Source: Nakamurella deserti
GTDB lineage: Bacteria > Actinomycetota > Actinomycetes > Mycobacteriales > Nakamurellaceae
Assembly (NCBI RefSeq): GCF_003260015.1
Contig: NZ_QCXS01000002.1
Span: forward strand, 620,001 to 684,000
Reading direction: 5' to 3'
Length of the DNA: 64,000 nucleotides
Under the pieces are notes generated by a model. The model was given only the letters and a program-made list of their open reading frames with translations, searched no databases and had not been told where the DNA came from. Positions 34,455 to 52,659 of this stretch are shown here, in pieces; position 1 is the stretch's first letter; each line of letters opens with the position of its first letter. Position numbers and translations under genes: made by a program.

Positions 34455-36272
34455 TCAGCCGGCCGGTACCGCCGGCGCCCGCCGGGATCGCCGGCGCCAC
34501 CGGAGCACCAGGGCGACCACGATCACGGCAACCGACCCGGACACCGAGACCGCCTGCCAGAACCGTGATCCCAGGTAGTCGCCCAGGCCCGGCCCGGACA
34601 CGGCGGTGAGGACGGCGTCCGGGGTCAGCAGGGCCGCGGCAGGCTTGGCGGTGCCGTCGGCGGCGACCACCCCCCGCGCGCCGGTGGTGGGTGAGTCCAC
34701 CACGGCCGCCGTGCTGAGCCGACCGACCCCGTCGGCCCGGGCCGCCGACAGCACCTCGGCCAGCGTCGCCGCCTGGGCCGCCGGCGTCCGGGGGGCCGGA
34801 CCCCAGCCACCGTCGGTGGCGGGCCCCGCGGAGACCCACGACAGCGGTCGCCCGTCGGCGGCCGCCGTCATCGGGGCCACCGTCGCGGCCAGCTCGTCCG
34901 GGTCCGTCCCGTCCACCCGCAGCGACACCAGGTCGACCAGTCCCACCATCGCGGGGTCGGTCGCGCCGGCCAGGTCGGGCCAGGTGATCGTCACCGGCGT
35001 CGCCGGGTCGAGGCCGTGCAGCCGGGTCGCCGCGATCACCAGGAACGCCCGGACGTCGGTCGCGGTGGCCCCGGCGGCGCGCCGGCCGTCGGGGTCGTCC
35101 ATCAGGTCCCACGCGGTCAGCGCGGGACTGTCGCGCACCACGGAGACGATCCGCTGCAGGTGACGGTCCGCGCCCGCCCACGTGGCGGGGGAGAGATCGG
35201 CCAGCCCGTCGAACAGCACCGGCACCACGCCGATGCCGGCCGCCTGCGCCTGGGCGAGGACCGTCGCGAGATTGTCCAGCGCGGCGTCGGTCGGGTCAGC
35301 GCCCCCCATCGCCGCGTAGTCGATCGGCACCCGCACCGCGGTCAGCCCCAGCTCGACGGCCCGGCGGAGGACGTCGCCGACGGCGGTCACCTCGGCGGGT
35401 GTCCAGTGGCCGTCGGGAGCGGGGGCAGGCGCGGCGGTGCCGGTGCCGGTGCCGGTGCCGGTGCCGGTGCCGGTGGGCGGTTCCGCGGTCCCGCCGGGAA
35501 CGGCGGTGGTCGCGGGGACGACGACCCCGGCGCCGTCGACGCCCAGAGTGGCGTCCCAGCGGTCCGGCCGGAACTCCGCGGCCCGGAACTCCGGCGCCTC
35601 GACCGGCTCCCGCGGGTCGGCGCCGGTGACCGAGGTGATGACCGTGTCGTCGGCGGTCGTGGTGCGCACCGTGACGACGCCGCCGTCCCCGCCGCGGCGC
35701 AACTGGTCGATCCGCCAGTACCCGTCCACCAGCGCCATCACCACGTCGTACCGCTCGTGCGTGACCAGGACGGTCTGCGTGTCGCCGCTGCGGACCGTGC
35801 GGGCGAGTGCGGCGTCACCGTCGGTGAAGGCGACGGTGCCACCGTCCAGCGCGTAGAACTGCAGGGTCAGCTCATGACCGAGATCGAAGGTGGCGACGGC
35901 GGAGTCACGGGGCGTCGCGAGCACCTGGGCACGGGCCCGGGCGGTGAAGGTGTCGGTCAGCGGCTCGTCGGAGCCGGTGGTCTGCAGGTGGCCGAGGGCG
36001 GCCCACGCGCGGATGTAGGCGGCCTCGACGAGCGTCCGGTTGGCGGGCTCGAGCTGACGGTCCCGCGTCCAGGCGTCGGGCTCCCACCGCACGAGGTGCT
36101 GCGCGTCCGGCGGCAGCGTGGCCACCTCGTGGAGTGCGGACGCGCTGTCGGCGCCCTGGGAGGCCTGCAGGACGAAGCGGCCGGCCACGACCACGGCACC
36201 CAGCGCCACGACGGCCCCGAGGACCAGGACCAGCTGCGCGACCAGCCGCTTGGCCCGGATGCGGCTGATCAT
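34455..36272 (-). CDS. Membrane-anchored protein: NTF2-like domain plus degenerate GH-A-like TIM barrel
   Basis: 605 residues. A first helix (residues 11-34) anchors the N-terminus. Residues 45-200 look NTF2/SnoaL-like (TRDRQLEPANRTLVEAAYIR, GYWRIDQL). A (Gly-Thr)6 linker at about 268-280 is encoded by a hexamer repeat. Residues 290-530 fit a TIM barrel of the GH5 type (LTAVRVPIDYAAM, GIGVVPVLFDG). The expected acid/base 'NEP' reads WDLMDDPDG, and the expected nucleophile strand reads LSWVSAGPATDGG, so both catalytic glutamates appear absent. A C-terminal helix (about 571-592) ends in RWRRRSRR. I infer a glycan-binding or scaffold role. Last gene of the operon; ATGA overlap with the one before. 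Confidence 0.7.
   Translation of the reverse strand: MISRIRAKRLVAQLVLVLGAVVALGAVVVAGRFVLQASQGADSASALHEVATLPPDAQHLVRWEPDAWTRDRQLEPANRTLVEAAYIRAWAALGHLQTTGSDEPLTDTFTARARAQVLATPRDSAVATFDLGHELTLQFYALDGGTVAFTDGDAALARTVRSGDTQTVLVTHERYDVVMALVDGYWRIDQLRRGGDGGVVTVRTTTADDTVITSVTGADPREPVEAPEFRAAEFRPDRWDATLGVDGAGVVVPATTAVPGGTAEPPTGTGTGTGTGTGTAAPAPAPDGHWTPAEVTAVGDVLRRAVELGLTAVRVPIDYAAMGGADPTDAALDNLATVLAQAQAAGIGVVPVLFDGLADLSPATWAGADRHLQRIVSVVRDSPALTAWDLMDDPDGRRAAGATATDVRAFLVIAATRLHGLDPATPVTITWPDLAGATDPAMVGLVDLVSLRVDGTDPDELAATVAPMTAAADGRPLSWVSAGPATDGGWGPAPRTPAAQAATLAEVLSAARADGVGRLSTAAVVDSPTTGARGVVAADGTAKPAAALLTPDAVLTAVSGPGLGDYLGSRFWQAVSVSGSVAVIVVALVLRWRRRSRRAPAVPAG
35435..35470. repeat. Hexanucleotide repeat (CGGTGC)6 inside a coding region
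   Basis: Six perfect copies of CGGTGC plus a partial copy, encoding a Gly-Thr run on the minus strand. Gain or loss of copies would keep frame and change linker length by two residues per copy. Confidence 0.8.
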
Positions 36273-37504
36273 CCGACGTCGACCGTGGTCGTGGTGCCCA
36301 GGACGGTCACCGCGGCGGTGACCGGTCCGGACAGTGCCGCCACCGGCAGCGACACGGTGCCGCTGCCGTCGACCAGCCCGACGGACGCCTGCACGTCGTT
36401 GCGCCGCAGGTCGCTCAGCGTCACGGTGGCGACCGTGCCGTCCGGGACGAAGGTGCCCCCCGTGCGGTTCACCGGGCCCACCGTGACCACCAGACCCCGC
36501 TCGTCGGCGGCGATGTCGACCGGGACCGTGGCCACCACCGACGGGAAGTCCAGCGTCAGCGGCGCCGCGGTGGAGGTGCCCCGCGAGAACGCGGTCAGCG
36601 TCACCGTTCCCGGCGCGGTGGGGGCCTGCACCGACAGTTCGGCGACGCCGGAGATGGTGACCGCCGACGACCGGGAGCGACCGCCGGGGCCCTCCCACTC
36701 CACCGTCACCAGCGTGCCGTCGGGCTGCACGTTGCCGAAGCGGTCGGCCAGCACCGACGTCCGCACCGTCACCAGGGCCTGGCCGTCCGCGCCCAGCCGG
36801 GCGGGCAGCGTCGGGTCCACCGCCGCCAGGGTGAAGGGCAGCGGTGGCCCGGCGACCTCGTCGAGACTGACCTGCTGGCCGGTCACGGTGTCGTCGGGTC
36901 CGGTCCGCAGCCAGACCGCCCCCCGGCCGGCCACGGTCCCCGACGTGAGCTCGAGCCAGCCCAGCAGGTGACGCACCTCGGTGCTCCCGGTGCTCGTGGT
37001 GCCCGTCGGGTCACGGTGCACCACGGTCACCGCCGACCCCTCGGCCACGGCGTTGCCCCAGCGGTCCACCGGCAGCGCCACCACCATCGACCGGTCGGCG
37101 GCGTCGGCGACGATGGAGCGGGCGCCGACGACCGGCAGCAACGGGCCGACGGCCGGACCCGGCAGGACGGCGACCGAACCCGTGGCCGACCGTCCACCGG
37201 ACTCGGCGATCACGGTGAGCGTGCCCGCCGCCTGGCTCAGCGCCGACTCCAGCGCGAACGTCGCCGCCCCGCCGGTGGTGGCGGCCGTGCGGACGACGGT
37301 GCCCAGGGAGCCGATCACGGTGAGCGTCACCGTGCCGTCGACCCCCGTAACGGTGACCGGCAGCCCGGTGCCCGCGGTCAGCTCGCCCGGCAGCTCGACG
37401 ACCGGGCCGTCGGACCGGTCGACCGCCGCGACGGCCGCGCCGCCGGCGGGGGCCGGCAGTGCGAGCAGCAGCGCGGCCACCAGCGACAGGACGGAGCGGC
37501 GCAC
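36269..37504 (-). CDS. Secreted Ig-like beta-sandwich protein
   Basis: 411 residues from GTG 37504. A signal peptide (RRSVLSLVAALLLALPAPAG) is followed by three or four beta-sandwich units (for example GLPVTVTGVDGTVTLTVIG, GVAELSVQAPTAPGTVTLTA, VSLPVAALSGPVTAAVTVL). These resemble invasin/Big-1-like Ig modules, and there is no enzyme motif or wall anchor. It lies in the polysaccharide operon: one base separates its start from the upstream stop, and its stop overlaps the next start by four bases. A structural or accessory role at the cell surface with its two membrane-protein neighbours is inferred. Confidence 0.7.
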   Translation of the reverse strand: MRRSVLSLVAALLLALPAPAGGAAVAAVDRSDGPVVELPGELTAGTGLPVTVTGVDGTVTLTVIGSLGTVVRTAATTGGAATFALESALSQAAGTLTVIAESGGRSATGSVAVLPGPAVGPLLPVVGARSIVADAADRSMVVALPVDRWGNAVAEGSAVTVVHRDPTGTTSTGSTEVRHLLGWLELTSGTVAGRGAVWLRTGPDDTVTGQQVSLDEVAGPPLPFTLAAVDPTLPARLGADGQALVTVRTSVLADRFGNVQPDGTLVTVEWEGPGGRSRSSAVTISGVAELSVQAPTAPGTVTLTAFSRGTSTAAPLTLDFPSVVATVPVDIAADERGLVVTVGPVNRTGGTFVPDGTVATVTLSDLRRNDVQASVGLVDGSGTVSLPVAALSGPVTAAVTVLGTTTTVDVG

Positions 37505-37505
37505 C

Positions 37506-40500
37506 TCAGCCGCCCCGGATGAAGGCGGTGGCCAGCAGCGACACCCCGGCGAACCCGGTGTCGGCCGGCAGCGACAGCATCGGGGGCAGGCCGCCGACCG
37601 CGGCGTCCGGCCCGTCGACAGGGGTGTGCGCCGGCCCCGCGAAGCCGGCGGTCGGTACCCCGGACGCGGTGATGCCCGCGGAATCGGCGACGGCGATGCG
37701 GAACGTCGTCGACGACTGTGCGGCGACACTGTGCTCGAGGTAGGCGTGGTCGACCCAGACGAGGTCGCCGGCGGCGTCGGTGTAGCCGAGCAGCAGGTGC
37801 GGGACCGCGGCGGCCACGGCGGTGTCGTTGCGCAGGGACCCGGTGACGAACGAGCCGTCGGCGTTGGTGTCCAGGCGGAGGTCGGTCACCTGCAGACCGC
37901 GCGTCGAGGTGTGGGGGGTGACGACCGCGCGGGCGTAGACCCCGACCGAGGCGACGTCGGCGCCGGGACGGAGCACCAGCGGTGTGATGGTCTGCGGGTC
38001 GAACTCGACCGGTCCCTTGACGTTGGACGTCTTCTGCACCGGCGGGGCGACGGTCAACGCGCCGCCGGTGCCGGTGTCCTTGACCCCGCCGTCGGCCTCG
38101 GTGCCGTAGCTGCCGGTGCCGGCGATGCTCTGGAACTCGATGCGGAACGGGCTGCTCTCGCCGGGCAGCAACTTGTGCACCATCACCTGCGAGGCGTCCC
38201 AGGAGGCGAGCAGCTCACCCTCCGGGTCACGCAGCTGGGCGCTCACGGTGACGTCGGCGGGATCGACGTCGGCGTTGGTGACCTGGCCGATCACCACCCA
38301 CCGGCCGTTCACCAGCATCGAGCGGACCTGGGTCAGGGTCAGCTCCGGCCGGTCCAGGATGTCCGCGGTGGACGTCTCGGTGTTGCCAGGGGTGCGTCGG
38401 CCCAGGGCGAGGAATCCCACCTCGGGACGGCTGGTGAATTCGTCGGGGGCCACCGAGGCGTCGGCGGCGGGCAGATCGATGTACCAGCGGTCGTCCTCCT
38501 GCAGCAGCACCACCTCACCGGTCACCTGGTAGGACTGCAGCGAGGTCAGGTAGTCGGCGGTGGTGGTCAGCACCGTCCGGCCCGGGGAGCTCGCGGTCGG
38601 CACGGCGGTCACCGACGCCAGCTTGGCGAAGGATGCCACGAGCCCACCGTCGCGGCCGAGATCCTTCTGGTACTGCATGAAGTCGGGCCGGGTCCGGGGG
38701 TCCAGCAGCGCCCAGGCGTCGGCGAACCGCCGGAAGTCCAGGTGGTCGTAGTAGTCGGTCACGACCTGTTCGGGGGTGCGCTCCGGCGGGCGCACCAGCA
38801 CCGCGGCCCCGCCGGTCCCCGCGACGGCGAGCACGGCCACCACGGCCAGGGCCTGCAGCCGGCGGCGCCGCCGCGGGATCCGCGCCGCCGACAGGCCGCG
38901 CAGCCGCTCGAGGGTGGGCCGCCACGGCTGCCAGCGGTCGCCGGCACCGGCCGTCGCCGCGGGGACGGCGGCCGCGGCCCCCGTGTGCGGCGCGGACAGC
39001 GGGGCGGCGGCCCGTGCGAGCCGGCGGTCGACGCGACGGCCGGCCGACCGGAGCGGGGCGGTGGTCCATCGCCCGATGCGCCGCCCCCGGCTCGAGATCC
39101 ACCGCAGCCAGCGCCATCCCGGCAGACGCCCGGGTTGCCCGAGGGCGGACCAGAACAGCACGCACAGCGCGAACAGCAACGACGCGGGCGGCACCGTGCC
39201 CCACATCAGCCGCTGCCACAGTGGGGCCTGGTGCGACCCGATGTCCACGGCCAGCGGGGTGACGTCGGCCCGCTCCCACACCTCGATGCCGTTCTCCAGC
39301 GGACCCAGATCCGTCCAGCCGTTGGCGTCCAGCAGCGGGGAGTAGAAGTCGTCGTTGGAGAACACGTACTTCAGGCTGTACCGCTCGGGGACGGCGAGGA
39401 ACTGCTGCAGGGAACCGATCCCGGGGACGCCGGAGTACTTCGCCCCCTCCAGGCGCTCCACCGGCCGCGTGGTGAGCTCGGGGAGCTGGCGGGCCGAGTG
39501 GTAGTTGCCGTCGACGGTGCCGGCGGTGGTGTTGGCGCCGAGCCAGGCCATCTGGTCGCCGAAGCCGAGCGTGAGATACCGCCAGTTGCCGTGGTTGTCC
39601 TTGTCGATGAACGTGGTGATGGGCGTGACGTCGATGGCGGCGGGCTGGAACGCCCGGTAGTGGGTCAGGTTGGCCGCGAACAGGGTGGTCGCCAGGTGGG
39701 CGGCCAGCAGCAGCAGCGGCAGCAGTGCGGCCAGCACCGTCCCCACCTGGCCGACCAGCCAGCGCCGCACGGTGCCGCCGACCACGCTGGCCACGAACCG
39801 TCCGGCCAGCGGCAGGATCGAGATGGTGGCCCAGAAGGTGAACCGGTCCAGCGTCAGGATGTCGTACGCGCCGCCCAGCAGCAGTTTCGGGAACGGGGTG
39901 GTGCCGCCGGTGCCGAAGAACGCGAGCACGCCGAGCGACAGCGCGAGCGGCCACGCCTTCGACGCCAGCCCACGGACGATCGCGTAGGGCAGCACGAGGA
40001 GCGTGGTGCCCCAGGGGATCAGCCAGAAGACCAGTCCGGCGTTGACGTTGACCAGGAAGTTGTCGCGGCTGGCGTGCGGGATGGAGATCTGGGTGATGGG
40101 GTCGCTGCGTGAGTACAGCCAGTAGGGCAGCACCACGGTCAGCAGCGCCATCACCAGCAGCGTCCCGTAGACGCCGGCCCGCAGCACCGCCGGCAGCATC
40201 CGGCGCAGCCGCCGGGCGACCAGGGGCCACAGCAGCCTGCGCCCCACCCGCACCGGATGCCCGGCGGCTTCGTCGGGATGCGGGGTCCGCAGCGCCCCCA
40301 CCACCCCGGAGACCAGCACCGGCCCGAGGAAGAACACCGCCCCGAAGAGCGTCGTGACGTGGTGCCCGGCGGTGGTGGCCATCGTGCAGGCGATGCCGGC
40401 GAGCAGCGCCCGGCGGTCACCGGTGCGCACCCAGCGGTCGGCGAACGGCAGCGAGTTCAGCAGGAAACCCAGCGAGAAGGTGGTGGGCAGCTGCCCGAAG

Positions 40501-41042
40501 ACGTGCACCGTCTCCGCGATCGAGGACGACAGCACCAGCAGGACGGCCGCCCAGCCGGCGGACCGCCGGTCCACCCAGATCATCGACCAGCGGTAGACGC
40601 CGATCGTGAGGTTGAGCAGCGCGCACAGCTGCACGACGACGAACCCGCCGCGCAGCCCGAACACCGCGCTCACCGCGGCGATGGCCTGGTGGCTGCCCGG
40701 CGGGTAGCTCAGCACCGAGAAGCCGGTGTACCAGCGGGTGTCCCAGCTGGAGAACCAGTCGCGCCGGTAGTGGTCGCCGAAGAAGATGTGCACGTAGGCG
40801 TCGTAGGTGCGCTGGTAGCTGCCCGAGAGCAGCAGCGCACCGTGGAACACCAGCACCAGCACCAGGGCCAGCAGCAGCAGCCGGTGCCGGCGGGCGAACC
40901 CGCCGGTCCGGGCGGCGGCCGTGGCGGCACCGTCCGGGCGGGTGCCCGGGACGGCGGCCGGCTCCGGGACGGGAACCCCGTCGGCCGGGGACACCGGCGG
41001 GTCGTCGGGCCGCGTCGGGCGGTCGTCGAGCGTGCGGGTCAC
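37506..41042 (-). CDS. Large GT-C-like polytopic membrane protein with extracytoplasmic NTF2-like and beta domains
   Basis: 1178 residues from GTG 41042. The first helix starts near residue 53. About eleven helices continue to ~residue 460, with an early outer loop DAYVHIFFGDHYRRDWFSSW rich in Asp and aromatics, as in GT-C or PTPS-related membrane proteins that use lipid-phosphate sugars. A ~150-residue outer domain (NWRYLTLGFGDQMAWLG) and another helix follow, then a basic loop. Residues ~728-748 are a further helix, ~755-880 NTF2-like (VTDYYDHLDFRRFADAWALL), and ~885-1178 beta-rich. It overlaps the EEP-hydrolase gene by four bases. It may be a transferase or polymerase of the exported glycan; catalytic residues are not proven. 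Confidence 0.7.
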   Translation of the reverse strand: MTRTLDDRPTRPDDPPVSPADGVPVPEPAAVPGTRPDGAATAAARTGGFARRHRLLLLALVLVLVFHGALLLSGSYQRTYDAYVHIFFGDHYRRDWFSSWDTRWYTGFSVLSYPPGSHQAIAAVSAVFGLRGGFVVVQLCALLNLTIGVYRWSMIWVDRRSAGWAAVLLVLSSSIAETVHVFGQLPTTFSLGFLLNSLPFADRWVRTGDRRALLAGIACTMATTAGHHVTTLFGAVFFLGPVLVSGVVGALRTPHPDEAAGHPVRVGRRLLWPLVARRLRRMLPAVLRAGVYGTLLVMALLTVVLPYWLYSRSDPITQISIPHASRDNFLVNVNAGLVFWLIPWGTTLLVLPYAIVRGLASKAWPLALSLGVLAFFGTGGTTPFPKLLLGGAYDILTLDRFTFWATISILPLAGRFVASVVGGTVRRWLVGQVGTVLAALLPLLLLAAHLATTLFAANLTHYRAFQPAAIDVTPITTFIDKDNHGNWRYLTLGFGDQMAWLGANTTAGTVDGNYHSARQLPELTTRPVERLEGAKYSGVPGIGSLQQFLAVPERYSLKYVFSNDDFYSPLLDANGWTDLGPLENGIEVWERADVTPLAVDIGSHQAPLWQRLMWGTVPPASLLFALCVLFWSALGQPGRLPGWRWLRWISSRGRRIGRWTTAPLRSAGRRVDRRLARAAAPLSAPHTGAAAAVPAATAGAGDRWQPWRPTLERLRGLSAARIPRRRRRLQALAVVAVLAVAGTGGAAVLVRPPERTPEQVVTDYYDHLDFRRFADAWALLDPRTRPDFMQYQKDLGRDGGLVASFAKLASVTAVPTASSPGRTVLTTTADYLTSLQSYQVTGEVVLLQEDDRWYIDLPAADASVAPDEFTSRPEVGFLALGRRTPGNTETSTADILDRPELTLTQVRSMLVNGRWVVIGQVTNADVDPADVTVSAQLRDPEGELLASWDASQVMVHKLLPGESSPFRIEFQSIAGTGSYGTEADGGVKDTGTGGALTVAPPVQKTSNVKGPVEFDPQTITPLVLRPGADVASVGVYARAVVTPHTSTRGLQVTDLRLDTNADGSFVTGSLRNDTAVAAAVPHLLLGYTDAAGDLVWVDHAYLEHSVAAQSSTTFRIAVADSAGITASGVPTAGFAGPAHTPVDGPDAAVGGLPPMLSLPADTGFAGVSLLATAFIRGG

Positions 41043-42022
41043 GATCGGCTCGTCAGCGCCAGTTCCGCGACCAGCCTGCGGTGGTCGCTGCCGGCACTGA
41101 CGGCCTCGTCCACCGACACCACCGCGACGCCGTCGCCGACGAGCACGTGGTCCAGCCGCATGACCGGCACCGTCGGGCCACCCCAGGACGGCCAGGTCGC
41201 GCCGTAGCCGGAACCGGCCTCCAGGAAGGCGTCCCGCTTCCCGGCGGCCAGCACCCGCTGGAAGGGAGCGTGGTCGACGGTGGCGTTGAAGTCGCCCGCC
41301 ATCACCAGGGCGGAACCGGCCGGGGCCGACATCGTGGCCAGCGCCTCCATCTGGGCCAGCCACACGGCGGTGTTCTCGCGGTTGACCGGAGCCACGGCGT
41401 GCACGTCCACCACGCGCACCGGGCCCGCCGCGGTCTGCAGGTCGGCCCGGGTCATCGGGCGGCCGGCCACGTCGAAGGCGCGGCCCCCGGTGATCGGCAG
41501 CCGGGACAGGATCAGGGAGCCGTGGAAGCCCGGCAACGCATTGTCGACGCGTCCGGGATAGGCCGTCCACAGCGGGGTGGTGGCGAGGGTCGCGGCGATC
41601 TCCGGCGTGATCTCCTGGAGCAGGATGACGTCCGCGCCGCTGGCCAGCAGCTCGTCGGCGAGCTCGGGGATCGCCGGGTTGTCCATCAGCACGTTCGCCG
41701 TGACCACCCGCAGGGGCACGGAACCGCCGGGTGCGGGCTGTGGGCCGTGCCAGCCCGTCGCGGCGCCGATCCAGCCGAGCTGGACGACGGTGATCGCGGC
41801 GGCCACCGCCGCCATCACCCGGCGCCGTCGCCACAGCGCCAGCCCGGCCAGCGGCAGCGCCGGCGCGAGCAGGAACACCGCCACCCCCTGCAGGCCGATC
41901 AGCAGCGGGACGTGCTCGGGCCGCACGGCCCGGTTGACCGTGACCAGCGCCAGCGCCGCGGTGAGCGACCAGCCGGCGACCGGACCGACACGCCGCCACC
42001 GGATGCGGCGGCCGGTCGTCAC
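41039..42022 (-). CDS. Endonuclease/exonuclease/phosphatase (EEP) family membrane protein
   Basis: 327 residues from GTG 42022. Three N-terminal helices (about 10-85) place the catalytic domain outside. The EEP fold has its marks in order: VVTANVLMDNP, the metal-binding Glu in VILLQEITPE, VVDVHAVAPVNRE, MAGDFNATVDHAPF, MRLDHVLV and the final His in AGSDHRRLVAEL. Members hydrolyse phosphodiesters in nucleic acids, phospholipids or sugar phosphates. An extracytoplasmic EEP enzyme within a glycan operon could release a lipid-phosphate carrier or act on a phosphate-linked glycan; that is inference. GTGA overlap with the receiver gene upstream. Confidence 0.8.
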   Translation of the reverse strand: MTTGRRIRWRRVGPVAGWSLTAALALVTVNRAVRPEHVPLLIGLQGVAVFLLAPALPLAGLALWRRRRVMAAVAAAITVVQLGWIGAATGWHGPQPAPGGSVPLRVVTANVLMDNPAIPELADELLASGADVILLQEITPEIAATLATTPLWTAYPGRVDNALPGFHGSLILSRLPITGGRAFDVAGRPMTRADLQTAAGPVRVVDVHAVAPVNRENTAVWLAQMEALATMSAPAGSALVMAGDFNATVDHAPFQRVLAAGKRDAFLEAGSGYGATWPSWGGPTVPVMRLDHVLVGDGVAVVSVDEAVSAGSDHRRLVAELALTSRS

Positions 42023-42405
42023 CGCCCTGGTCCGCCGGACATGATGGTGGCCAGGCACTGCTGCAGGGCCCGCGTGCTGATCGGCTTGGTGAGCTGGGCG
42101 TCCACGCGGTGACCCGGGTCGTCGGCCGGGCCGGTGTGCTGGACGACCCCGGTGATGAGCACGAACAGCGGCCGCGGCGCGTGCAACGAGGCCAGCAGGT
42201 CCATCCCGGTGCCGCCCGGCATCGAGTAGTCGCTGAACACGGCGGTGTAGTCGAACTCGGCCAGCAGGGAGCGGGCCGGTGCGACGTCGTCGGCCTCGTC
42301 GACCTCCCAGCCGGACCGGCGCAGCATGTGGGCGAGCACCAGCCGCGACACCGTGTCGTCGTCGACGACCAGCGCGGTCCGGACGTCCCCGGCGGCTGCC
42401 GTCAC
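42019..42405 (-). CDS. Single-domain response regulator of the partner-switch module
   Basis: 128 residues, receiver domain only. LVVDDDTVSRLVL supplies the acidic residues, the phospho-acceptor Asp is in AVFSDYSMPGGTGMD, and the later conserved positions are in VLITGVV and LTKPIS. It overlaps the STAS gene upstream and the EEP gene downstream, each by four bases, so it is firmly part of this operon. With no output domain it must work by protein contact. The divergent hybrid kinase with an HPt domain (49306-52659) is a candidate phosphodonor. Confidence 0.88.
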   Translation of the reverse strand: MTAAAGDVRTALVVDDDTVSRLVLAHMLRRSGWEVDEADDVAPARSLLAEFDYTAVFSDYSMPGGTGMDLLASLHAPRPLFVLITGVVQHTGPADDPGHRVDAQLTKPISTRALQQCLATIMSGGPGR

Positions 42406-42773
42406 GACGTCGCCACGGGGGCCGGCGGGAGGATGGTGAAGACGCGGTCGAACTGGGTCAACCGGAACACCCGGGTCGCGTCGACGGAGCGCGGGCCCAC
42501 CAGGACGACGTCGCCGTCCTGCAATCGGGTCTCGCGGCGGGACCGGACCAACACGGCGAGACCGGCGCTGTCCACGAAGGTCACGTCGGACAGGTCCACG
42601 GTGAGGTGCGGGTACCCGTCGGCGAGCAGACCCGCGAGCGCCTCGTGCAGCTCCGGGGCCGCGACCGCGTCCAGCCGGCCCGCGACCACCGCGGTGGCCG
42701 TGTTCCCGGCGGTCACGGCGGTTGTCACGGTGAGAGGTGCGTGCGACGGCGGGGTCGCGTGCGGTGGGGGCAT
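42402..42773 (-). CDS. STAS-domain anti-anti-sigma-like protein (second of two)
   Basis: 123 residues. A STAS fold with the regulatory serine in TFVDSAGLAVLVRSRR, the site phosphorylated by RsbW/SpoIIAB-type kinases, preceded by HLTVDLSDV. The N-terminal ~15 residues are a Pro/His/Ala tail. ATG 42773 has GGAG 11 bases upstream. In a partner switch the unphosphorylated STAS protein binds the kinase or another client. It lies 57 bases after the ATPase gene and overlaps the receiver gene. Confidence 0.88.
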   Translation of the reverse strand: MPPPHATPPSHAPLTVTTAVTAGNTATAVVAGRLDAVAAPELHEALAGLLADGYPHLTVDLSDVTFVDSAGLAVLVRSRRETRLQDGDVVLVGPRSVDATRVFRLTQFDRVFTILPPAPVATS

Positions 42774-42830
42774 GGAGGCGCTCCGGATGGATCGTCGGTC
42801 GGGCGGGGTCGGTGCGGGGCGGGGCGGGGC

Positions 42831-43283: not shown

Positions 43284-43317
43284 CGGGCGCCGGCCGGGAC
43301 GGTTCGGGTAACGGGGT

Positions 43318-44700: not shown

Positions 44701-45020
44701 GAGACCGCCCCGGCGTCGGGGATCCGGATGGTGAACACCTGGCTCAACGCGGTGAGCTCCAGGATGACCCGGACCGGGTCCGAGAGCGCGGTGATCACCA
44801 GCGTGCCGCCGCACGCGTGGGCCGACTTCTGCGCCCGGACCAGCTCGGCCAGCGCGCTGGAGTCGACGAACACCACCTGGGCGAGGTCCAGGTCGACGGT
44901 GTCCCCGTCGCGCAGCAGCGGGTCGATGGCGGTCCGGAAGGCGGGCAGTTCGTGCGCGTCGAAGCGGCCGGCGAGTTCGATCTGGTGGGAGCCGTTCCCG
45001 GTCTCGGTGCGGATTCTCAT
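44697..45020 (-). CDS. STAS-domain anti-anti-sigma-like protein (first of two)
   Basis: 107 residues, a compact STAS domain with the phospho-site region VVFVDSSALAELVRAQK (two adjacent serines) and IELAGRFDAHELPAF. It overlaps the GT2 gene (ATGA) and the phosphatase gene (GTGA), so it is translated with both a glycosyltransferase and its own regulator. It may be the switch protein whose client is the adjacent glycan machinery. It diverges well beyond the second STAS protein, so the two are not a recent duplication. Confidence 0.88.
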   Translation of the reverse strand: MRIRTETGNGSHQIELAGRFDAHELPAFRTAIDPLLRDGDTVDLDLAQVVFVDSSALAELVRAQKSAHACGGTLVITALSDPVRVILELTALSQVFTIRIPDAGAVS

Positions 45021-45910
45021 CGGGCGGTCCTGTCCTGGGCGTCGTCGGTGCGGGGAGCGGTGCGGTCGGTGGCGGTGGGGGCGTAGCGGCCGCGCAGGTC
45101 GTACCACCTGATGGTCACCAGGTCCCGGAGGAACTGCAGGGTCACCTTGGCGGCGTCGACCGTGGACCCGGGGGCGTCGATCCACTCGACCGGCACCTCG
45201 GTGGTGGCCAGTCCGCGTCTGGCGGCGAGGTAGAGCACCTCGAGGTCGAACGAGAAGCCGTCCACCTTCTGGGCGGTGAACAGCTGGCGGGCCGCGTCGG
45301 CGGTGAAGAGCTTAAAGCCGCACTGGGTGTCGCGGACGCGGATGCCGAAGCCGACCGACACGATCACCCGCAGTCCGTTGCTCAGCAGCTTGCGCAGTGC
45401 CGACTTCCCGCTCACCTCGGCGCCGGTGGCGGCGCGCGAGCCGACGACCACGTCGTAGCCGTCGTCGATGCGGTCCATCAGCTCGCCGAACTGCTCGATC
45501 GGCGTGGACTGGTCGGCGTCGGCGAAGAGCACGACGTCACCCCGGGCGGCGAGCACTCCGCGGCGTACCGCCGATCCCTTGCCGCCGTTGGCCTCGGCGA
45601 CCAGGACCCGCATGTTGGGGAACCGCAGGTCCTGCAGCAGCGACACCGTCGTGTCGGTCGAGCCGTCGTCGGCGACGATCAGCTCCCACGGTTCGCCACG
45701 CGACGACAGGTGGGTGGCGATGGCCCCCACCGTCGGCAGGATGCGGAACTCCTCGTTGTAGGCCGGGATCACCACCGAGATCCGCGGCCGCTCGGTGAGT
45801 GGCCGGGACACCCAGTCCCGGTAGGCCTGGTAGGCCGCGCTGGCCGGTCCCGCGGGCCGGGCGGCCGGCGGGGACTCCGGGTGGACGCGGGTCGATTCGG
45901 TGGTGGTCAT
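45017..45910 (-). CDS. GT2 glycosyltransferase, dolichyl-phosphate glucosyltransferase-like
   Basis: 297 residues. A GT-A fold with ISVVIPAYNEEFRI, the nucleotide-sugar site VADDGSTDTT, the metal-binding DADQS in VLFADADQSTP, and GFKLFTADAARQLF followed by DLEVLYLAARRG, the layout of Alg5/DPG-synthase-like enzymes. These transfer a sugar from UDP- or GDP-sugar to a polyprenyl phosphate on the inner face of the membrane. The product would be a substrate for a GT-C enzyme, and a GT-C-like protein is encoded in the same operon. ATGA overlaps on both sides. Confidence 0.88.
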   Translation of the reverse strand: MTTTESTRVHPESPPAARPAGPASAAYQAYRDWVSRPLTERPRISVVIPAYNEEFRILPTVGAIATHLSSRGEPWELIVADDGSTDTTVSLLQDLRFPNMRVLVAEANGGKGSAVRRGVLAARGDVVLFADADQSTPIEQFGELMDRIDDGYDVVVGSRAATGAEVSGKSALRKLLSNGLRVIVSVGFGIRVRDTQCGFKLFTADAARQLFTAQKVDGFSFDLEVLYLAARRGLATTEVPVEWIDAPGSTVDAAKVTLQFLRDLVTIRWYDLRGRYAPTATDRTAPRTDDAQDRTAR

Positions 45911-47298
45911 GCGCCGGCCTCCGTCGGGCTGGTGGTCGCGGGGGCCGACGGCCGGGCCCCGCGGAGATGGTCGACCGTCAGGACGACGAGAAGCAGGGCC
46001 ATGGCCGTCAACTGGGCCGTGATCAGTTGCACGGCCGAGCCGTGCCGGAACAGCAGGAGCACCAGACCCAGGACCGCCCCGCCGAGCAGCAGCCAGGACG
46101 GCCGGGCGTTGCCCAGGGACAACTGGTGGCTGGCGATGAGGTTGCCGACCGCGAACAGCGTCGTCATCCCCGCGTACAGCGCGAGCAGCCCCGACAGGCC
46201 CGCGTACGCCGGACCGAGGACCACCCCGAGCACCGGGCCGCCCACCGTCCACGCCGCCGCCGCGCAGACCGCGCCGATTGCGGTGACCGCCAGGATGCCG
46301 CCCCGGAGCAGGCTGTCGGTGTTCCCGCCACCGGCGTGCCGGGCGGCGACCGCCGGGAACACCACGGTCGCCACCGACCAGGACAGGAAGAAGACCGCGC
46401 GGCCGATGAGCGCCACCGCGGCGAAGATGCCGGCGGCGGTGGGCGTCAGGTACGCCTTCGCCACCAGCACGTCGGAGTTGTTGGCGATCATCTGGCCGAC
46501 CAGCAGCACCGAGGTGAACCCGATGTAGGCCCGCACCTCGCCCAGCGGCGGCCGCGGTCCGGCCGTCGGCCGGTGGGCTCCGGACAGCACGTGCACGACG
46601 AGCCCGGTGGCCACGAACGACGCGGCCAGACCGACGGTCGCCCCGACGACCCCGAAACCGAGCGTGACCAGCAGCGCGCCGAGCCCGAGCCGTACCACCA
46701 TCTCCACGACGAAGGTGACCGCCAGCGGTCGGAACCGCAGCCGGCCCTGCATGACGCCACGCCCGACGGACTGCACGAGGTAGAACGGCATCCCGGCGCC
46801 GAGGATCACGAACGGCACCCACGACTCGGTGTGGAACACCTCCCGCCACCAGACCGCCGGGGCGGCCAGCAGTACCGCGCAGCCGAGGCCGGCGACGAGG
46901 GCCCCGCGGCGCAGCGTGCGGGCCAGCCGGTCCGAGCGCTCCGGGGTGCCCGCGGCGTCGTAGGAACCCACGAAGCGGGCCGCGACCAGCTGCAGGCACA
47001 GCGTGAGGGAGGTCAGGGTCAGCATCAACGTGACCATCAGCGTGGCGTCGGAGAACTGGGCCGGGGTGAGCCACCGGCCGAGCAGCAGGTTGAGCGCGTA
47101 GTTGCCGGCGTTGGCCACCAGCATCGCCAGGCCCAGGATGCTGCCGCCGGCCAGCAGCGCGCGACCGCTGGTCGGGTCGGCGATCGCGTCACCCGGATCG
47201 TCCACGGTCGGCACGACCGCGCCGGCCGGTGGGAGTGTCCCGGTCGCTACCCCCGGCACCGGGGCGCCGACGGAGCGGACCGACTGCGGCGCGGTCAT
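45907..47298 (-). CDS. Polysaccharide flippase, Wzx/MurJ-like (MATE/MVF superfamily)
   Basis: 463 residues with twelve to fourteen hydrophobic helices from residue ~50. The first reads LLAGGSILGLAMLVANAGNY, with RWLTPAQFSDATLMVTLMLT next, typical of O-antigen/polysaccharide flippases. Such proteins move lipid-linked sugars across the membrane. The ATG at 47298 overlaps the stop of the GT4 gene. With the two glycosyltransferases it forms the assembly/export core of the operon. Confidence 0.85.
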   Translation of the reverse strand: MTAPQSVRSVGAPVPGVATGTLPPAGAVVPTVDDPGDAIADPTSGRALLAGGSILGLAMLVANAGNYALNLLLGRWLTPAQFSDATLMVTLMLTLTSLTLCLQLVAARFVGSYDAAGTPERSDRLARTLRRGALVAGLGCAVLLAAPAVWWREVFHTESWVPFVILGAGMPFYLVQSVGRGVMQGRLRFRPLAVTFVVEMVVRLGLGALLVTLGFGVVGATVGLAASFVATGLVVHVLSGAHRPTAGPRPPLGEVRAYIGFTSVLLVGQMIANNSDVLVAKAYLTPTAAGIFAAVALIGRAVFFLSWSVATVVFPAVAARHAGGGNTDSLLRGGILAVTAIGAVCAAAAWTVGGPVLGVVLGPAYAGLSGLLALYAGMTTLFAVGNLIASHQLSLGNARPSWLLLGGAVLGLVLLLFRHGSAVQLITAQLTAMALLLVVLTVDHLRGARPSAPATTSPTEAGA

Positions 47299-48509
47299 GC
47301 CGGCACCGTCGCGCGCCGGTCGAGCAGGCGCCGGACGTGCACCAGGTGCCAGTGCACGACCTCGCTCATCGGGATACCGGAGGCCGCCGCGAAGTTGGTC
47401 CGGCCCAACGCGATGCGCTGCTGTGGGTCGTCGAGGACCGTGGCGATCGCGTCGGCCAGGCTGCCCGGGTCACCGGGTTCGAAGTAGACGCCGCGGAAGC
47501 CCTCCTCCTCGATGATGTCCACGAGGTCGCCGATGCGGGGGAGCACCGCGGCCCGGCCGTACTCACCGGCCTGGTGCAGCACCCCCGAGCTGCCGGTCGT
47601 CGACGTGTACGGGAACGCCACGACCGAGGAGGACGCGAACAGCGGGGCCACGTCCTCCTCGGCGACGTAGCCGGTGAAGGTCAGGTGGTCGAGATCGGCG
47701 TGCTCGGCGGCGACACCGGCCATGTAGCCGGCGGAGTTCGGGCTGTCGGTGCCGGCGAGGACCAGCTCCAGGTCGTCGTAACCGCGTGCGAGCAGCTCGC
47801 GGTAGGCGTCGACGAGGATGTCGACCGTCTTGTAGGTCCCCCACTTGCCGAAGGCCATGATCCGACGGCGGCCGGCCGGCACGTCGAAGGACGGGACGGC
47901 GACCTCCTCGAAGCTGCCGTGCGGCGCCAGGATCGCGTTGTCGGCGCCGTAAGAGCGCTGCAGGAACTCGACGTAACGCGGAATGGTCAACGCCACCAGA
48001 TCCGCCCGCAGCAGGGCGCGGGTGAGCAACCGGCCGGCGGTGCGCAGGATCCGTGCGGACAGCGCCGAGGTGGCGAAGCCGGCGTCGCGCATGTCCACGT
48101 TGTCGGCCAGGTTGTGCAGGATCACGATGGTGCGCACCCGCAGCATCCGCAGGACGGCCGGGATCAGCAGCCCGGTGCCGCCCGCGATGCGGGTGTCGCC
48201 GAACGTCGCGAACTGCAGGTTGAGCAGCACGGCGTCGGGTCGGTCGGCCCGTACCGCGCGCACGACCCGCCACAGATTGGCCAGGCTGTTGAAGCGCCAG
48301 CAGGGCACCGCCACCACACCGGGCACCGGGGTGGGCGGTCCGGCCTCGGTCTCGTCGGCGTAGAGCACGACCTCGGACACCTCGGCCGACCGGGCCAGGT
48401 GATTGACCAGGTGCAGCCCGAACTCGTTGAGGCTGTTGCGCCCGGGTGGGAAGGCCGACAGCACCCCGATGCGCAACGGCGCGTCGCGCAGCCGGCGTGG
48501 AACGGTCAC
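47295..48509 (-). CDS. GT4-like glycosyltransferase
   Basis: 404 residues from GTG 48509. A GT-B fold with LRIGVLSAFPPGRNSLNEFG at the N-terminus, the mid-domain APHGSFEEVAVPSF, then IMAFGKWGTYKTVDILVDAY and the donor-site stretch FPYTSTTGSSGVLHQAGEYG, as in family-4 transferases using nucleotide sugars. It leads the assembly genes of the operon. Its GTG overlaps the stop of a small upstream frame (48506-48730), as at most other junctions of this operon. Confidence 0.85.
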   Translation of the reverse strand: MTVPRRLRDAPLRIGVLSAFPPGRNSLNEFGLHLVNHLARSAEVSEVVLYADETEAGPPTPVPGVVAVPCWRFNSLANLWRVVRAVRADRPDAVLLNLQFATFGDTRIAGGTGLLIPAVLRMLRVRTIVILHNLADNVDMRDAGFATSALSARILRTAGRLLTRALLRADLVALTIPRYVEFLQRSYGADNAILAPHGSFEEVAVPSFDVPAGRRRIMAFGKWGTYKTVDILVDAYRELLARGYDDLELVLAGTDSPNSAGYMAGVAAEHADLDHLTFTGYVAEEDVAPLFASSSVVAFPYTSTTGSSGVLHQAGEYGRAAVLPRIGDLVDIIEEEGFRGVYFEPGDPGSLADAIATVLDDPQQRIALGRTNFAAASGIPMSEVVHWHLVHVRRLLDRRATVPA

Positions 48510-48730
48510 GACGCGTCGGCCCGCAGTGCCGGCGCCGTCGAGGGCCGGGTCACGCGGTCGCTGTCCTGCACCGCATGGAGGTGACTCACGGTGACCGACA
48601 TCAGGCGCCCGGGGTCGAGGTCCACCGGTCGCCGCGACCGCCGTGTGTACCGATGACCGGGTGTGCCGGCCGACGTGGCGCCGGAGAGCTGAACGGGTGA
48701 CGCGGGGGCGGATCGTCGGTGGAGTGGCAT
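48506..48730 (-). CDS. Possible small leader protein of the polysaccharide operon
   Basis: 74 residues from ATG 48730, with AGAGGA eight bases upstream and good third-position G/C bias. Its TGA overlaps the glycosyltransferase GTG in the same GTGA style as other junctions of the operon. The product is Arg/Pro/Ser-rich with a '[18 protein letters not shown]' segment near the end; I recognise no family, signal peptide or helix. It may be a real small protein or a translated leader that couples the operon. Confidence 0.4.
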
Positions 48731-49305: not shown

Positions 49306-52300
49306 GTGACGGCAGCAGGCCCGGCTCCGCACCCGCTGTCGGAGCACCCCGCGTCCCCGGCGGGCGTGCCGGGCGGCGGTGCCGCCGCCGGCGGGATCGC
49401 CGCCGGCACCGGTTCCGGCGACGCCGTCTGGTGGGCGCGGGCGGGGGACCCGGTGCCGGACATCGACGCCCGGGGCGGCATCGGACGTCCCGTCGACGGC
49501 GGTGTGATGTCTCTCACCGACGAGCCCGACGCGGCGCCGCAGAACGACGGGCGGATCCCGCGTCCCACCGTGCCCACCGCGGTGCGGGCCCTGCTGGTGG
49601 TGCTGGGTGCGGGCTGCGGTGCCTACGCGGTCGGGTCGGCGTTGCCGACCACCCTGCCCGGTTGGTGGCGGGACGGGGTGTACGTCGCACTGGAGGCGCT
49701 CGCGACGGCGCTGATCGCGGCCCGGGCGGTCCGGGTCCGCACCGAGCGCACCGCCTGGGCGGTGCTGCCCGCCGGTCTGTCGATGCTGGTCGTCGGGGAC
49801 GTGCTGATCACCGGTCCACGGTCCTCGGGGATGGTGTCCCCGCCCGACGTCCTCTACATCGGCTTCTTCGTGCTGACGTTCCTGTCGATGGTGCTGCTGC
49901 TGCGGCAGCGGTTGCCGCGCGCCAGCTCGTCCGTGTGGCTGGACGGGCTGATCGCCGGGTTCGGGCTGGTGGCGGTCGCCGCGGCGTTCAGTCTCTCGCC
50001 GGTCGACGGCGTGACGATGAACCAGGTGGCGGTGCTGGCCTACTCGGTGAGCCTGCTGATGCTGGTGGCGCTGATGATCGGGGCGGCGACCGTGCTCGGA
50101 CGGCGGCCGAGCACCGTGTGGTGGCTGATCAGCGCCGCGTTCGCGCTGATGGCGGCGTCCAACGTGGTGATCGCCCCGGCGGTCGCGGCGGGGACCTACG
50201 TCCGGGGCGCTCCCGTCGACGCGGTCTGGCCGGTGGCGTGCCTGCTGCTGGCGATCGCGGCCTGGCGGGCCGGGCGGCCGCCACGGTCGTCGACGGACGT
50301 CTCGCCGCTGACCGTCGCCGCCCCCACCGTGTTCATCGTGCTGGCGTTGTGCGTGCTCGCGGTCAACGAGCTCGCCGGTCTGCAGCCCTTCTCGGTGCTG
50401 TTCGCGCTGGCCACCCTGGTGGCCGGAGCGGTGCGCTTCACGATGGCCGTCGGAGCGGCGGTACGGCTGACCCGCAGGGAGATCGAGCTGAACCGCAGCC
50501 TGGCCCGCGCCCGCGACGAGGCCGTCGCGGCGACGACCGCGAAGTCGGAGTTCCTGGCGACGATGAGCCACGAGATCCGGACACCGATGAACGCCATCAT
50601 CGGGATGACCGGTCTGCTGCTGGACACCGGCCTGACCCCGGTCCAGCGCGACTACGTGGACACCGTCCGCCGGGGCGGTGACCTGCTGCTCGAGGTCATC
50701 AACGACATCCTGGACTTCTCCAAGATCGAATCCGGTCAGCTGGAGCTGGAGAACCGGCCCTTCGACCTGGTGTCGGCGTTCGAGGACGTGCTCGGGCTGC
50801 TCGCCGTCACCGCGGACGGCAAGGACGTCGCGCTGCTCTGCGACTTCGCCGACGGCTGCCCGACGTGGGTCTCCGGTGACCGCACCCGGCTGCGGCAGGT
50901 GCTGCTGAACCTGGCCGGCAACGCGGTCAAGTTCACCGCGTCCGGCAGCGTCACCGTCCGCATCGAGCCCGTGCCGACCGCCGACCCCGCGCGGATCGCC
51001 CTGCGGGTCGACGTCACCGACACCGGCATCGGCATCCCCGCCGACCGGATGCACCGCCTGTTCCGGGCGTTCAGCCAGGTCGAGGCGTCCACCACCCGTG
51101 AGCACGGCGGGTCGGGCCTCGGTCTCGCGATCAGCCGCGCGATCGTGGAGCGCATGGGCGGCGGCATCACCGTCCGCAGCGAGGCCGGCGTCGGTTCGGT
51201 CTTCTCCTTCACCACCGTCCTCGACCGCTGCCCCGTCCCCGAAGGGGCCACCATGACCAACACCGTGTCGCTGACCGGCCGGACCGCACTCGTCGTCGAC
51301 GACAACGCGGCCAACCGGCGCATCCTGACCGAGCAGATGACCCGCTGGGGCATGCGGGTCGCGGCGGTGGCGAGCGCCGCCGAGGCGCTGCGACTCGTCG
51401 ACACCGCCCCACCGGACGTGGCGCTGGTCGACATGCAGCTGCCCGACCTCGACGGCGCCGAACTGGCCGGGATGCTGCACGACGACCCGCGCTGGGCCGA
51501 CGTGCCGCTGATCCTGTTGACCAGCCTCAGCCGCTCGCTGACCGCCGACCGGCGGGAGAACTTCGCCGCCACGATGACCAAACCGGTCCGCAACGCCGAG
51601 CTGCGGCGGGCCGTGATGGCCGTGCTCTCGGGGCTCGCGCCGGGGCTGGACGAGCTGGTCCGCGCGCCGGTGGAACGGCACGGGCTGCGCGTCCTGCTGG
51701 TCGAGGACAACCTGGTGAACCAGCGCGTCGGGCAGCTGCTGCTCAGCCGTGCCGGACACGAGGTGGAACTGGTCGGCAACGGCCGCGAGGCACTGGCCGC
51801 CGTGCAAAACCAGCACTACGACGTCGTCCTGATGGACGTGCACATGCCCGTGATGGACGGACTCACCGCGACGCGGGAGATCCGGGCCCTGGGGACCGGC
51901 CTGCGGCAGCCGCGGATCGTCGCGCTGACCGCCAGCGTCACCACCGAGGACCGGCGGGCCTGTCGGAAGGCCGGCATGGACGGCTACCTGAGCAAGCCCA
52001 TCCGGGCCGAGGAGCTCAACGCCACCCTCGCCGACATCGCCGCCGCGATCGGGGCGCCGTCCGACCCGGACACCACCCCCGACCGCCCAGGTGCCACCGA
52101 TGGTCCGGACGCGGGTGCGGGCGCCGGCCGGACCGACGGGGGCCACGCGACGGGGGCCGGCACCGCCGGTGCGTCGGTCGCGCCGGTCGTGGACGGGGAC
52201 GGGGGGCCGCCGACCGTCGAACCGGACGGGGGGCCGCCGGCCGTCGGACCGGACGGGCCGCTGCCGAGCGTAGACCGGGACGGGCTGCCGTCGGTCGCGC

Positions 52301-52659
52301 CGGTCGTGGTCGGGGAGCCGGCGCTCGACGAGGAGCGCTTCGCCGAGCTCGCCGAGCTGCCCGAGGAGATCCGGCGCCCGATGATCCGGTCGTGGCTCGC
52401 CGAGGTCGTCGGCTTCGACGCGGCGCTGCGCGCGGAACTCGCCGCCGGTGACACCGAGGCGGTGCGCTTCCGCTGCCACCGGCTCAAGGGCAGCAGCGGC
52501 ACCCTGGGAGCGATGGCGGTCTCCCGCGGCTGCGCCGGCATCGAGGACGCCGTGCGCCGGGGGGAACCGGTCGACGCCGCTCAGGTGGACGCTTTGCGGG
52601 GGAGTCTCCGCGACGTCGCCGCGGTGCTCGCCGGCCGTGGCTACCACCCCGCCGGGTGA
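49306..52659 (+). CDS. Hybrid sensor histidine kinase with two receivers and an HPt domain
   Basis: 1117 residues from GTG 49306, where third-position bias begins; ATG 49207 and 49507 are alternatives. About nine helices (residues ~90-380) form a membrane sensor. HisKA has phospho-His422 in [17 protein letters not shown]. HATPase boxes are [17 protein letters not shown] and GSGLGLAIS. Receiver 1 has [14 protein letters not shown] and receiver 2 has [14 protein letters not shown], both with intact Asp and Lys. An acidic Pro/Gly repeat linker (~920-1000) leads to the HPt domain with His1058 in [14 protein letters not shown] full phosphorelay in one chain, divergent from the partner-switch operon. 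Its HPt could pass phosphate to a stand-alone receiver such as 42019-42405. Confidence 0.88.

What the first reader, a model, noticed from the sequence alone, without database searches (positions are those of the whole stretch)
34455..52659. Partner-switch phosphorylation module built into a polysaccharide assembly operon
Seen: twelve minus-strand genes, nearly all joined by 4-base overlaps, mix assembly functions (GT4, flippase, GT2, GT-C-like, EEP hydrolase, surface proteins) with two STAS proteins, a GAF-SpoIIE phosphatase, an RsbW-like kinase and a receiver. A hybrid kinase with HPt is divergent. Known: SpoIIE/RsbW/STAS sets classically free a sigma factor, but some bacteria use STAS proteins to control biofilm or polysaccharide functions directly. 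Inferred: no sigma gene accompanies the set, and the first STAS gene is translationally coupled to the GT2 gene, so the client may be a glycan enzyme or the flippase. Pairing with a full phosphorelay would give two-layer control of export. This is my best candidate for an undescribed system.
Basis: partly seen in the sequence, partly recalled or inferred. Interest (0 to 1): 0.78.

Follow-up and report, generated by a model that had tools for sequence, protein, structure and literature searches.

The report
Phospho-switch wired into sugar-polymer assembly operon
A set of genes that makes and exports a cell-surface sugar polymer carries its own on/off protein-phosphorylation switch, and comparison with related bacteria suggests the switch acts on the polymer machinery itself rather than on gene expression.

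Summary
Twelve minus-strand genes (34455-48464) join a GT4, flippase, GT2, GT-C-like protein, EEP hydrolase and two surface proteins to two STAS proteins, a SpoIIE phosphatase, an RsbW kinase and a receiver; a hybrid kinase with HPt is divergent. The core GT4-flippase-GT2-STAS1-SpoIIE-RsbW-STAS2-receiver recurs in this order in 19 loci of scattered Actinomycetota, including a second class. One sigma query found no sigma gene in 35 stretches. A sister group (9 loci, 8 genomes) shows no SpoIIE or RsbW in the stretches held; the seven uncut loci keep two STAS genes beside the glycan genes. The phospho-serine is present in 38 of 38 STAS proteins with the switch and 0 of 15 without, though this may be one evolutionary change. 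One related locus, L071, shows no STAS. Best reading: the STAS pair serves the cytosolic glycan machinery (GT2/GT4/flippase), and RsbW/SpoIIE make that switchable. The client is inferred, not shown. Syp and Sia/Hsb switches are known relatives in kind, so this is a new variant of a known kind.

The parts
47295..48464 (-). GT4 glycosyltransferase (first gene of the operon, g42)
   Evidence: Pfam Glyco_trans_1_4 69.8 bits; 62-76% identical to the six other rows aligned
45907..47298 (-). Wzx/MOP-type flippase (g41)
   Evidence: Pfam Polysacc_synt 33.8 bits, cut-off 28.2; 10 hydrophobic segments
45017..45910 (-). GT2 glycosyltransferase (g40)
   Evidence: Pfam Glycos_transf_2 99 bits; best NCBIfam match, far below its cut-off, is dolichyl-phosphate hexose transferase (68 of 375 bits)
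44697..45020 (-). STAS1 protein with phospho-acceptor-type Ser54 (g39)
   Evidence: Pfam STAS_2 56 bits; Ser54 in 19 of 19 switch loci
43318..44694 (-). SpoIIE/PP2C phosphatase with GAF-like N-terminal part (g38); start may be GTG 44700
   Evidence: Pfam SpoIIE 123 bits; model and Foldseek matches to the RsbU domain of Rv1364c and to SiaA; Asp 248, 265, 386, 445, 446 invariant in 18 rows; the only SpoIIE match in the genome
42831..43283 (-). RsbW-type serine kinase (g37)
   Evidence: Pfam HATPase_c_2 68.7 bits; ATP-binding motifs as in 9 rows aligned
42402..42728 (-). STAS2 protein with Ser54 (g36)
   Evidence: Pfam STAS 61.8 bits; Ser54 in 19 of 19 switch loci
42019..42405 (-). Stand-alone receiver (g35)
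   Evidence: Pfam Response_reg 48.9 bits; acceptor Asp and Lys kept in 9 of 9 aligned
41039..42022 (-). Membrane-anchored EEP-family hydrolase (g34)
   Evidence: Pfam Exo_endo_phos 97 bits; two hydrophobic segments; homologues in 3 other switch loci and in G1111
37506..41042 (-). GT-C-like polytopic membrane protein, 1178 aa (g33)
   Evidence: No Pfam family over cut-off; low-confidence model matches AglB/STT3; 11 homologues from other loci aligned
36269..37504 (-). Probably exported surface protein (g32)
   Evidence: Invasin_D3 match below cut-off; homologues in G008, G1120, G1252, G1111, G1257 and Ww501
34455..36272 (-). Membrane-anchored surface protein (g31)
   Evidence: no Pfam family over cut-off; homologues next to g32 homologues in G008, G1120, G1252, G1111 and Ww501
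49366..52659 (+). Divergent membrane hybrid histidine kinase HisKA-HATPase-REC-REC-HPt (g43); start uncertain
   Evidence: Pfam; kinase matches beside 13 of 19 switch loci, HPt matches beside 11 of 19

Best explanation
The operon is a surface-polysaccharide assembly line with a self-contained partner switch. The two STAS proteins serve the cytosolic glycan machinery (GT2, GT4 or the inner face of the flippase). RsbW phosphorylates Ser54 of the STAS proteins; SpoIIE removes the phosphate. The hybrid kinase, through its HPt, feeds the stand-alone receiver and/or the SpoIIE input domain. Unphosphorylated STAS is probably the active form, so the phosphatase turns assembly on. Shown: gene content, order, conservation, intact catalytic motifs, no sigma gene found nearby, and the match between phospho-serine and kinase. 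Inferred: the client, the direction of the switch and the phosphorelay wiring.
For: Eight-gene core in the same order in 19 loci. Sister loci: no SpoIIE or RsbW in the stretches held, and two STAS genes beside GT2, GT4 and flippase genes in the 7 that are not cut by contig ends. STAS1 and STAS2 overlap by 1-4 nt in 6 of the 6 loci where both were called; STAS2 overlaps the flippase gene by 4 nt in 3 of these 6. Ser54 in 38 of 38 STAS with the switch, 0 of 15 without; the replacements are R, A, M, Q, T, L, G, P, never D or E, while STAS1 Asp53 stays in 7 of 7. No sigma gene found in 35 stretches. The genome has one SpoIIE match, in this operon, and its best RsbW-type match is here (68.6 bits; next 38.8 bits in a 496-aa frame). 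Precedent: SypA is active when unphosphorylated and acts below transcription on an unknown target (passages).
Against: No interaction or phenotype data. Type A is one clade on the GT4 tree, so serine and switch may have changed together only once. Type B STAS proteins are divergent: by score 5 of 7 STAS1 assignments are clear, G1280b and G553 are ambiguous, and unrelated STAS proteins score as high in absolute terms. One of the 15 replacements is Thr (G553), which could be phosphorylated. L071 has GT2, GT4 and a flippase gene (read in two frames) and no STAS in its 10.5-kb contig. In 3 of 6 sister loci STAS2 does not overlap the flippase gene (98-nt gap in G1257; flippase on the other strand in G171 and G1398). 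GT2-STAS1 overlap is available in 10 of 19.
Confidence: 0.6

Rival explanations
1. Classical partner switch in trans: RsbW holds an unlinked SigB/SigF-type sigma factor, freed by unphosphorylated STAS, and the sigma transcribes the operon and other genes.
For: A SigB/F/G-like sigma gene exists elsewhere in the genome (C3:1018970, 204.8 bits, below the 234 cut-off); seven neighbours scanned, of 19 other genes called in its 20-kb stretch, include no RsbW or STAS, so a partner in trans is conceivable. A STAS_2-like gene below cut-off (25.9 bits) lies about 37 kb from it. A match to this sigma at E <= 1e-40 occurs in 17 of 17 genus genomes, G008 and G012 included. RsbW and STAS proteins look canonical.
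Against: No sigma gene found in 35 stretches (one query). The two other carriers in the genus, G008 and G012, have best matches of only 43% identity, while G007 (55%) and G015 (48%), which show no match to the operon's GT4 at E <= 1e-100, have closer ones. The STAS pair persists beside glycan genes where no kinase is in view.
Confidence: 0.2
2. The client is a diguanylate cyclase or other signalling enzyme elsewhere, as with HsbA-HsbD or SiaC-SiaD in Pseudomonas, and glycan control is indirect.
For: Published precedents (abstracts). Sub-threshold matches only: MASE11 in the EEP protein, Diguanyl_cycl_sensor in the L071 kinase.
Against: No GGDEF match among the 20 window proteins scanned or the 30 neighbours scanned; not every neighbour was scanned, and the rest of the genome was not searched for GGDEF. 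The STAS pair stays with glycan genes.
Confidence: 0.12
3. The switch genes are an ordinary regulatory cassette kept in the operon for co-expression only, with a target unrelated to the glycan.
For: Linkage alone does not prove interaction; no binding data exist.
Against: Same eight-gene order across two classes, with patchy distribution that fits transfer as a unit; STAS pair beside the glycan genes also where no kinase is in view.
Confidence: 0.08

Closest known systems
Vibrio fischeri SypA/SypE in the syp polysaccharide locus (PMC4517449, PMC10120452; passages seen)
   Same: STAS protein with one phospho-serine, encoded inside a polysaccharide locus under a hybrid-kinase phosphorelay, with no evidence for a sigma client; target reported as unknown
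   Different: SypE is one protein with kinase, receiver and phosphatase parts; here kinase, phosphatase and receiver are separate genes and there are two STAS proteins; different phylum and glycan genes
Pseudomonas SiaABCD and HptB-HsbA-HsbD biofilm switches (PMC7647112, PMC5085249; abstracts and outlines seen)
   Same: SiaABC: phosphatase, kinase and anti-sigma-antagonist-like substrate controlling biofilm; HptB cascade: an anti-anti-sigma protein acting with a non-sigma partner. The phosphatase here has a weak NCBIfam match to SiaA (20 of 700 bits) and a Foldseek match to its PP2C domain
   Different: Output is a diguanylate cyclase; that the genes are not in a glycan operon is recalled
Nostoc HmpU/HmpV/HmpW (through the review PMC8256260; passage seen)
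   Same: Separate phosphatase, STAS and kinase in a motility and polysaccharide locus; target unknown
   Different: One STAS protein named in the passage; cyanobacterial; no GT4-flippase-GT2 order mentioned there
Bacillus SigB/SigF modules (RsbU-RsbV-RsbW; SpoIIE-SpoIIAA-SpoIIAB) (recalled)
   Same: Same three protein families and presumed chemistry
   Different: Sigma gene linked there (recalled); none found nearby here
MlaB, STAS subunit of the Mla lipid transporter (recalled; NCBIfam matches of 28 and 31 bits, cut-off 90)
   Same: Precedent for a STAS protein as a fixed subunit of envelope machinery, as proposed for the kinase-less sister loci
   Different: Works with an ABC transporter, not with glycan genes (recalled)

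Membership tests
Sigma-factor partner switch (SigB/SigF type) | HATPase_c_2 serine kinase, STAS substrate with conserved serine, PP2C/SpoIIE phosphatase | tested here: met
Sigma-factor partner switch (SigB/SigF type) | linked sigma factor gene as client | tested here: not met
   no match to one SigB/F-like query in 35 stretches; the control stretch was found
Sigma-factor partner switch (SigB/SigF type) | kinase binds sigma factor | not testable with these tools
   no complex prediction or binding assay available
Syp-type polysaccharide partner switch | STAS protein with phospho-serine encoded inside a polysaccharide assembly locus | tested here: met
Syp-type polysaccharide partner switch | kinase, receiver and phosphatase in one SypE-like protein | tested here: not met
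   three separate genes; a fused form exists at L064 beside a cellulose-synthase-like gene
Syp-type polysaccharide partner switch | STAS acts below transcription | not testable with these tools
   needs mutants and a glycan assay
Wzx-type polysaccharide assembly | MOP-family flippase with glycosyltransferases | tested here: met
   Pfam
Wzx-type polysaccharide assembly | Wzy polymerase | tested here: inconclusive
   no Wzy family hit among the twelve proteins scanned with Pfam (ten of them also with NCBIfam); GT-C-like g33 may take that place

The most novel reading that the evidence does not exclude
A STAS pair is a dedicated non-sigma subunit of a GT2/GT4/flippase assembly complex. In one lineage a kinase-phosphatase pair sits between the two STAS genes and makes the complex phospho-switchable; in sister lineages without the pair the phospho-site is gone and the subunits are locked in an unphosphorylated, presumably active, state.
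Probability: 0.45. Interest if true: 0.8.

Novelty: new variant of a known kind. Interest (0 to 1): 0.62.

Why it matters
What non-sigma STAS proteins in polysaccharide loci bind is an open question: papers of 2015 and 2023 call SypA's target unknown (passages), and a listing of ten papers from 2022 on showed no title naming it (of these I saw passages of the 2023 paper only). This family offers natural with-kinase and without-kinase versions of the same machine, which narrows the likely client to GT2, GT4 or the flippase and gives direct tests (S54A, S54D, swap of a kinase-less STAS pair). If right, partner switching would be a direct post-translational gate on glycan assembly in actinobacteria.

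Tried and rejected
Translational coupling as proof of a GT2 client: rejected, the four-base overlap is available in 10 of 19 loci. Raw STAS HMM scores as proof of orthology: rejected, unrelated STAS proteins from L063 and L064 score as high; only the STAS1-minus-STAS2 difference and gene order help. Mirror-tree tests among operon genes were not run, since all genes are co-inherited. GAF domain by Pfam: no hit; kept only as a model-based reading. A second structural comparison of g38 was not possible. Transglutaminase matches in the g33 fold search were set aside as beta-domain matches with TM-scores near 0.06.

Dropped rows: in the serine count the fragment G1280a was left out as a near copy of G1280b; loci cut by contig ends (G1141, G1252, G1233, G1353) and the distant Ww501 (L070) and bin25 (L071) were counted as neither type. 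The SpoIIE alignment holds 17 of the 19 switch loci plus the G008 paralogue; G1204 and G1120 were not put in. Sigma detection rests on one query at E <= 1e-3; stretches were 3.1 to 64 kb.
Full report
What is there. The window is 64 kb of a 4.6-Mb high-GC genome, contig C2:620001-684000. Gene calling gives twelve minus-strand genes from 48464 down to 34455 and a divergent plus-strand gene, 49366-52659. Pfam names them in order: GT4, flippase, GT2, STAS1, SpoIIE phosphatase, RsbW-type kinase, STAS2, receiver, EEP hydrolase, a 1178-aa membrane protein without a Pfam family over cut-off, and two probably exported proteins; the divergent gene is a hybrid kinase with two receivers and an HPt. Seven of 11 junctions are four-base overlaps with default starts, eight with an alternative GTG start of the SpoIIE gene. 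One SigB/F-like query found no sigma gene in the window.

The switch looks competent. Five aspartates of the SpoIIE protein (248, 265, 386, 445, 446), whose metal-binding role is recalled, are invariant in 18 rows: 17 of the 19 switch loci and the G008 paralogue. Its model (mean pLDDT 84) matches the RsbU domain of Rv1364c and SiaA, with a GAF-like N-terminal part by my reading of the secondary structure. In nine aligned RsbW proteins the motifs of the ATP site are recognisable (names recalled); 8 of 9 keep the aspartate of the first glycine box, G008 does not. Both STAS proteins carry the serine of the DS motif and the receiver keeps its acceptor residues. In the own genome there is one SpoIIE match; of 15 HATPase_c_2 matches the one here is best (68.6 bits, next 38.8 bits in a 496-aa frame). 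Two further STAS_2 matches, both below cut-off, lie elsewhere.

Conservation. A scan of named genomes with the GT2 alignment returned Rhodococcus sp. KRD162 (L066), Agreia bicolorata (L067), Actinokineospora sp. NBRC 105648 (L068) and an Acidimicrobiales MAG (L069) as its four best loci. All four carry GT4-flippase-GT2-STAS1-SpoIIE-RsbW-STAS2-receiver in this order, as do two of the 16 other genus members searched, G008 and G012. GT4-alignment searches at E <= 1e-100 found matches in 6 of 397 genomes of the order, 3 of 396 of the phylum and 4 of 394 of the class, samples that overlap and include the own genome; at E <= 1e-90, with a wider alignment, in 19 of 248 genomes of the order of G427 and 4 of 218 of the genus of G171. 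Reading the neighbourhoods with profiles built here gave 19 loci with the complete eight-gene core. Of the 34 GT4 rows found, 19 are of this type A, 9 of the type B below, and 6 are undecided or cut. Distribution is patchy, which fits transfer as a unit (inference).

Surrounding genes. In the GT4 tree the window groups with six other loci (100/100). Around the core, two polymer sets occur: g33, in several loci with g32 and g31 (window, G008, several loci of the order of G427), and a membrane protein of about 1060-1110 aa with a polysaccharide pyruvyl transferase (Rhodococcus, Agreia, Actinokineospora, G012, G1038, and in the sister group G171 and G1398). Histidine kinase matches lie beside 13 of 19 core loci and HPt matches beside 11 of 19; G012 has a receiver-HPt protein only; G427, G1038 and G1204 show neither in the stretch held, and contig ends limit others. 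g33 has a low-confidence model (mean pLDDT 59) whose membrane part matches AglB and STT3 oligosaccharyltransferases (E about 1e-4, query TM-score about 0.2), so GT-C-like is likely but not firm.

The sister group. Nine GT4 loci in eight genomes (G1111, G1151, G1257, G1280 twice, G1398, G171, G182, G553) show no SpoIIE or RsbW in the stretch fetched (3.1 to 20 kb), and the seven that are not cut show two STAS genes beside the glycan genes. Whether these genomes have such genes elsewhere was not searched. In the six loci where both STAS genes were called, they overlap by one to four bases; STAS2 overlaps the flippase gene by four bases in three of the six (G1111, G1280b, G553), lies 98 bases from it in G1257, and the flippase is on the other strand in G171 and G1398. 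In G1111 and G1257 the GT2 and GT4 are fused in one protein. So the STAS pair goes with GT2, GT4 and the flippase even where no kinase is in view. L071 is an exception: all three glycan genes, the flippase read in two frames, and no STAS in 10.5 kb.

Phospho-serine and kinase go together. At STAS position 54 the 19 switch loci have serine in 19 of 19 STAS1 and 19 of 19 STAS2. The kinase-less loci have it in 0 of 7 STAS1 (R three times, A, M, Q, T) and 0 of 8 STAS2 (L three times, A twice, G twice, P); the threonine in G553 could in principle be phosphorylated. The neighbouring STAS1 Asp53 stays in 7 of 7. No replacement is acidic, which suggests that the kinase-less STAS resembles the unphosphorylated form; that in turn suggests the unphosphorylated form is active, as published for SypA (passages). 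Caveats: the switch loci form one clade (100/99), so this may be a single evolutionary change; type B STAS proteins are divergent and two of seven STAS1 assignments are ambiguous.

Mechanism. STAS1, STAS2, RsbW, SpoIIE, GT2 and the receiver have no membrane segment by a simple hydropathy scan and GT4 has one possible one, so the STAS proteins can reach GT2, GT4 and the inner face of the flippase. The best reading is that unphosphorylated STAS licenses the GT/flippase complex, RsbW switches it off by phosphorylating Ser54, SpoIIE switches it on, and the hybrid kinase tunes the switch through the receiver. Gene content, order and residue conservation are shown; client, direction and wiring are inferred.

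Sigma rival. The genome has a SigB/F-like sigma gene on another contig; seven neighbours scanned, of 19 other genes called in its 20-kb stretch, are not switch genes, while a sub-threshold STAS_2 gene lies about 37 kb away. All 17 genus genomes have some match to this sigma at E <= 1e-40; the closest are in G007 (55%) and G015 (48%), not in the operon carriers G008 and G012 (43% each). No sigma gene was found in 35 stretches with one query. The rival stays possible because RsbW could act in trans.

What is known. Review and primary papers describe STAS switches for polysaccharide or biofilm: SypA/SypE (passages of PMC4517449 and PMC10120452), HmpU/V/W (passage of PMC8256260), SiaABC (abstract of PMC7647112) and HptB/HsbA/HsbD (abstract of PMC5085249). 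The review also names an Anabaena protein, all4160, with a STAS domain joined to a glycosyltransferase, a useful hint of direct contact. Searches of the held open-access library for STAS or partner-switch terms with glycosyltransferase, flippase, SpoIIE or polysaccharide terms listed no paper whose title or abstract start describes this actinobacterial locus; most subscription journals are not covered. I therefore call it a new variant of a known kind.

Noticed in passing
L064:6751-11820 and L063:8757-13759 (same genus, G006 and G001): A cellulose-synthase-like GT2 lies beside a STAS gene and a SpoIIE gene; in G006 kinase, receiver and SpoIIE are one protein and the next gene joins a receiver to a PIG-L deacetylase. 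A second link of partner switch and glycan synthesis in this genus.
   Followed up: partly
L057:4906-16961 (G008) and window 24810-31295: G008 has a second SpoIIE gene directly after homologues of window genes g26-g27 (acyltransferase joined to a serine hydrolase) and an RsbW gene about 4 kb further on; in the window g25-g27 have no SpoIIE gene beside them.
   Followed up: partly
31532-33804: Receiver and histidine kinase g28-g29 resemble the pair next to the L063 and L064 switches (47-55% identity).
   Followed up: no
L189:12808-14763 and L192:12837-14789: GT2 and GT4 of this family are one protein, which suggests they act together.
   Followed up: yes
L056:11905-12333 (G008): RsbW seems to have lost the aspartate of the first glycine box, so its kinase activity may be reduced; the paralogue in L057 keeps it.
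   Followed up: no
48465-49365: About 900 bases between the divergent GT4 and hybrid-kinase genes; the kinase start is uncertain (longest frame begins at 48643).
   Followed up: no
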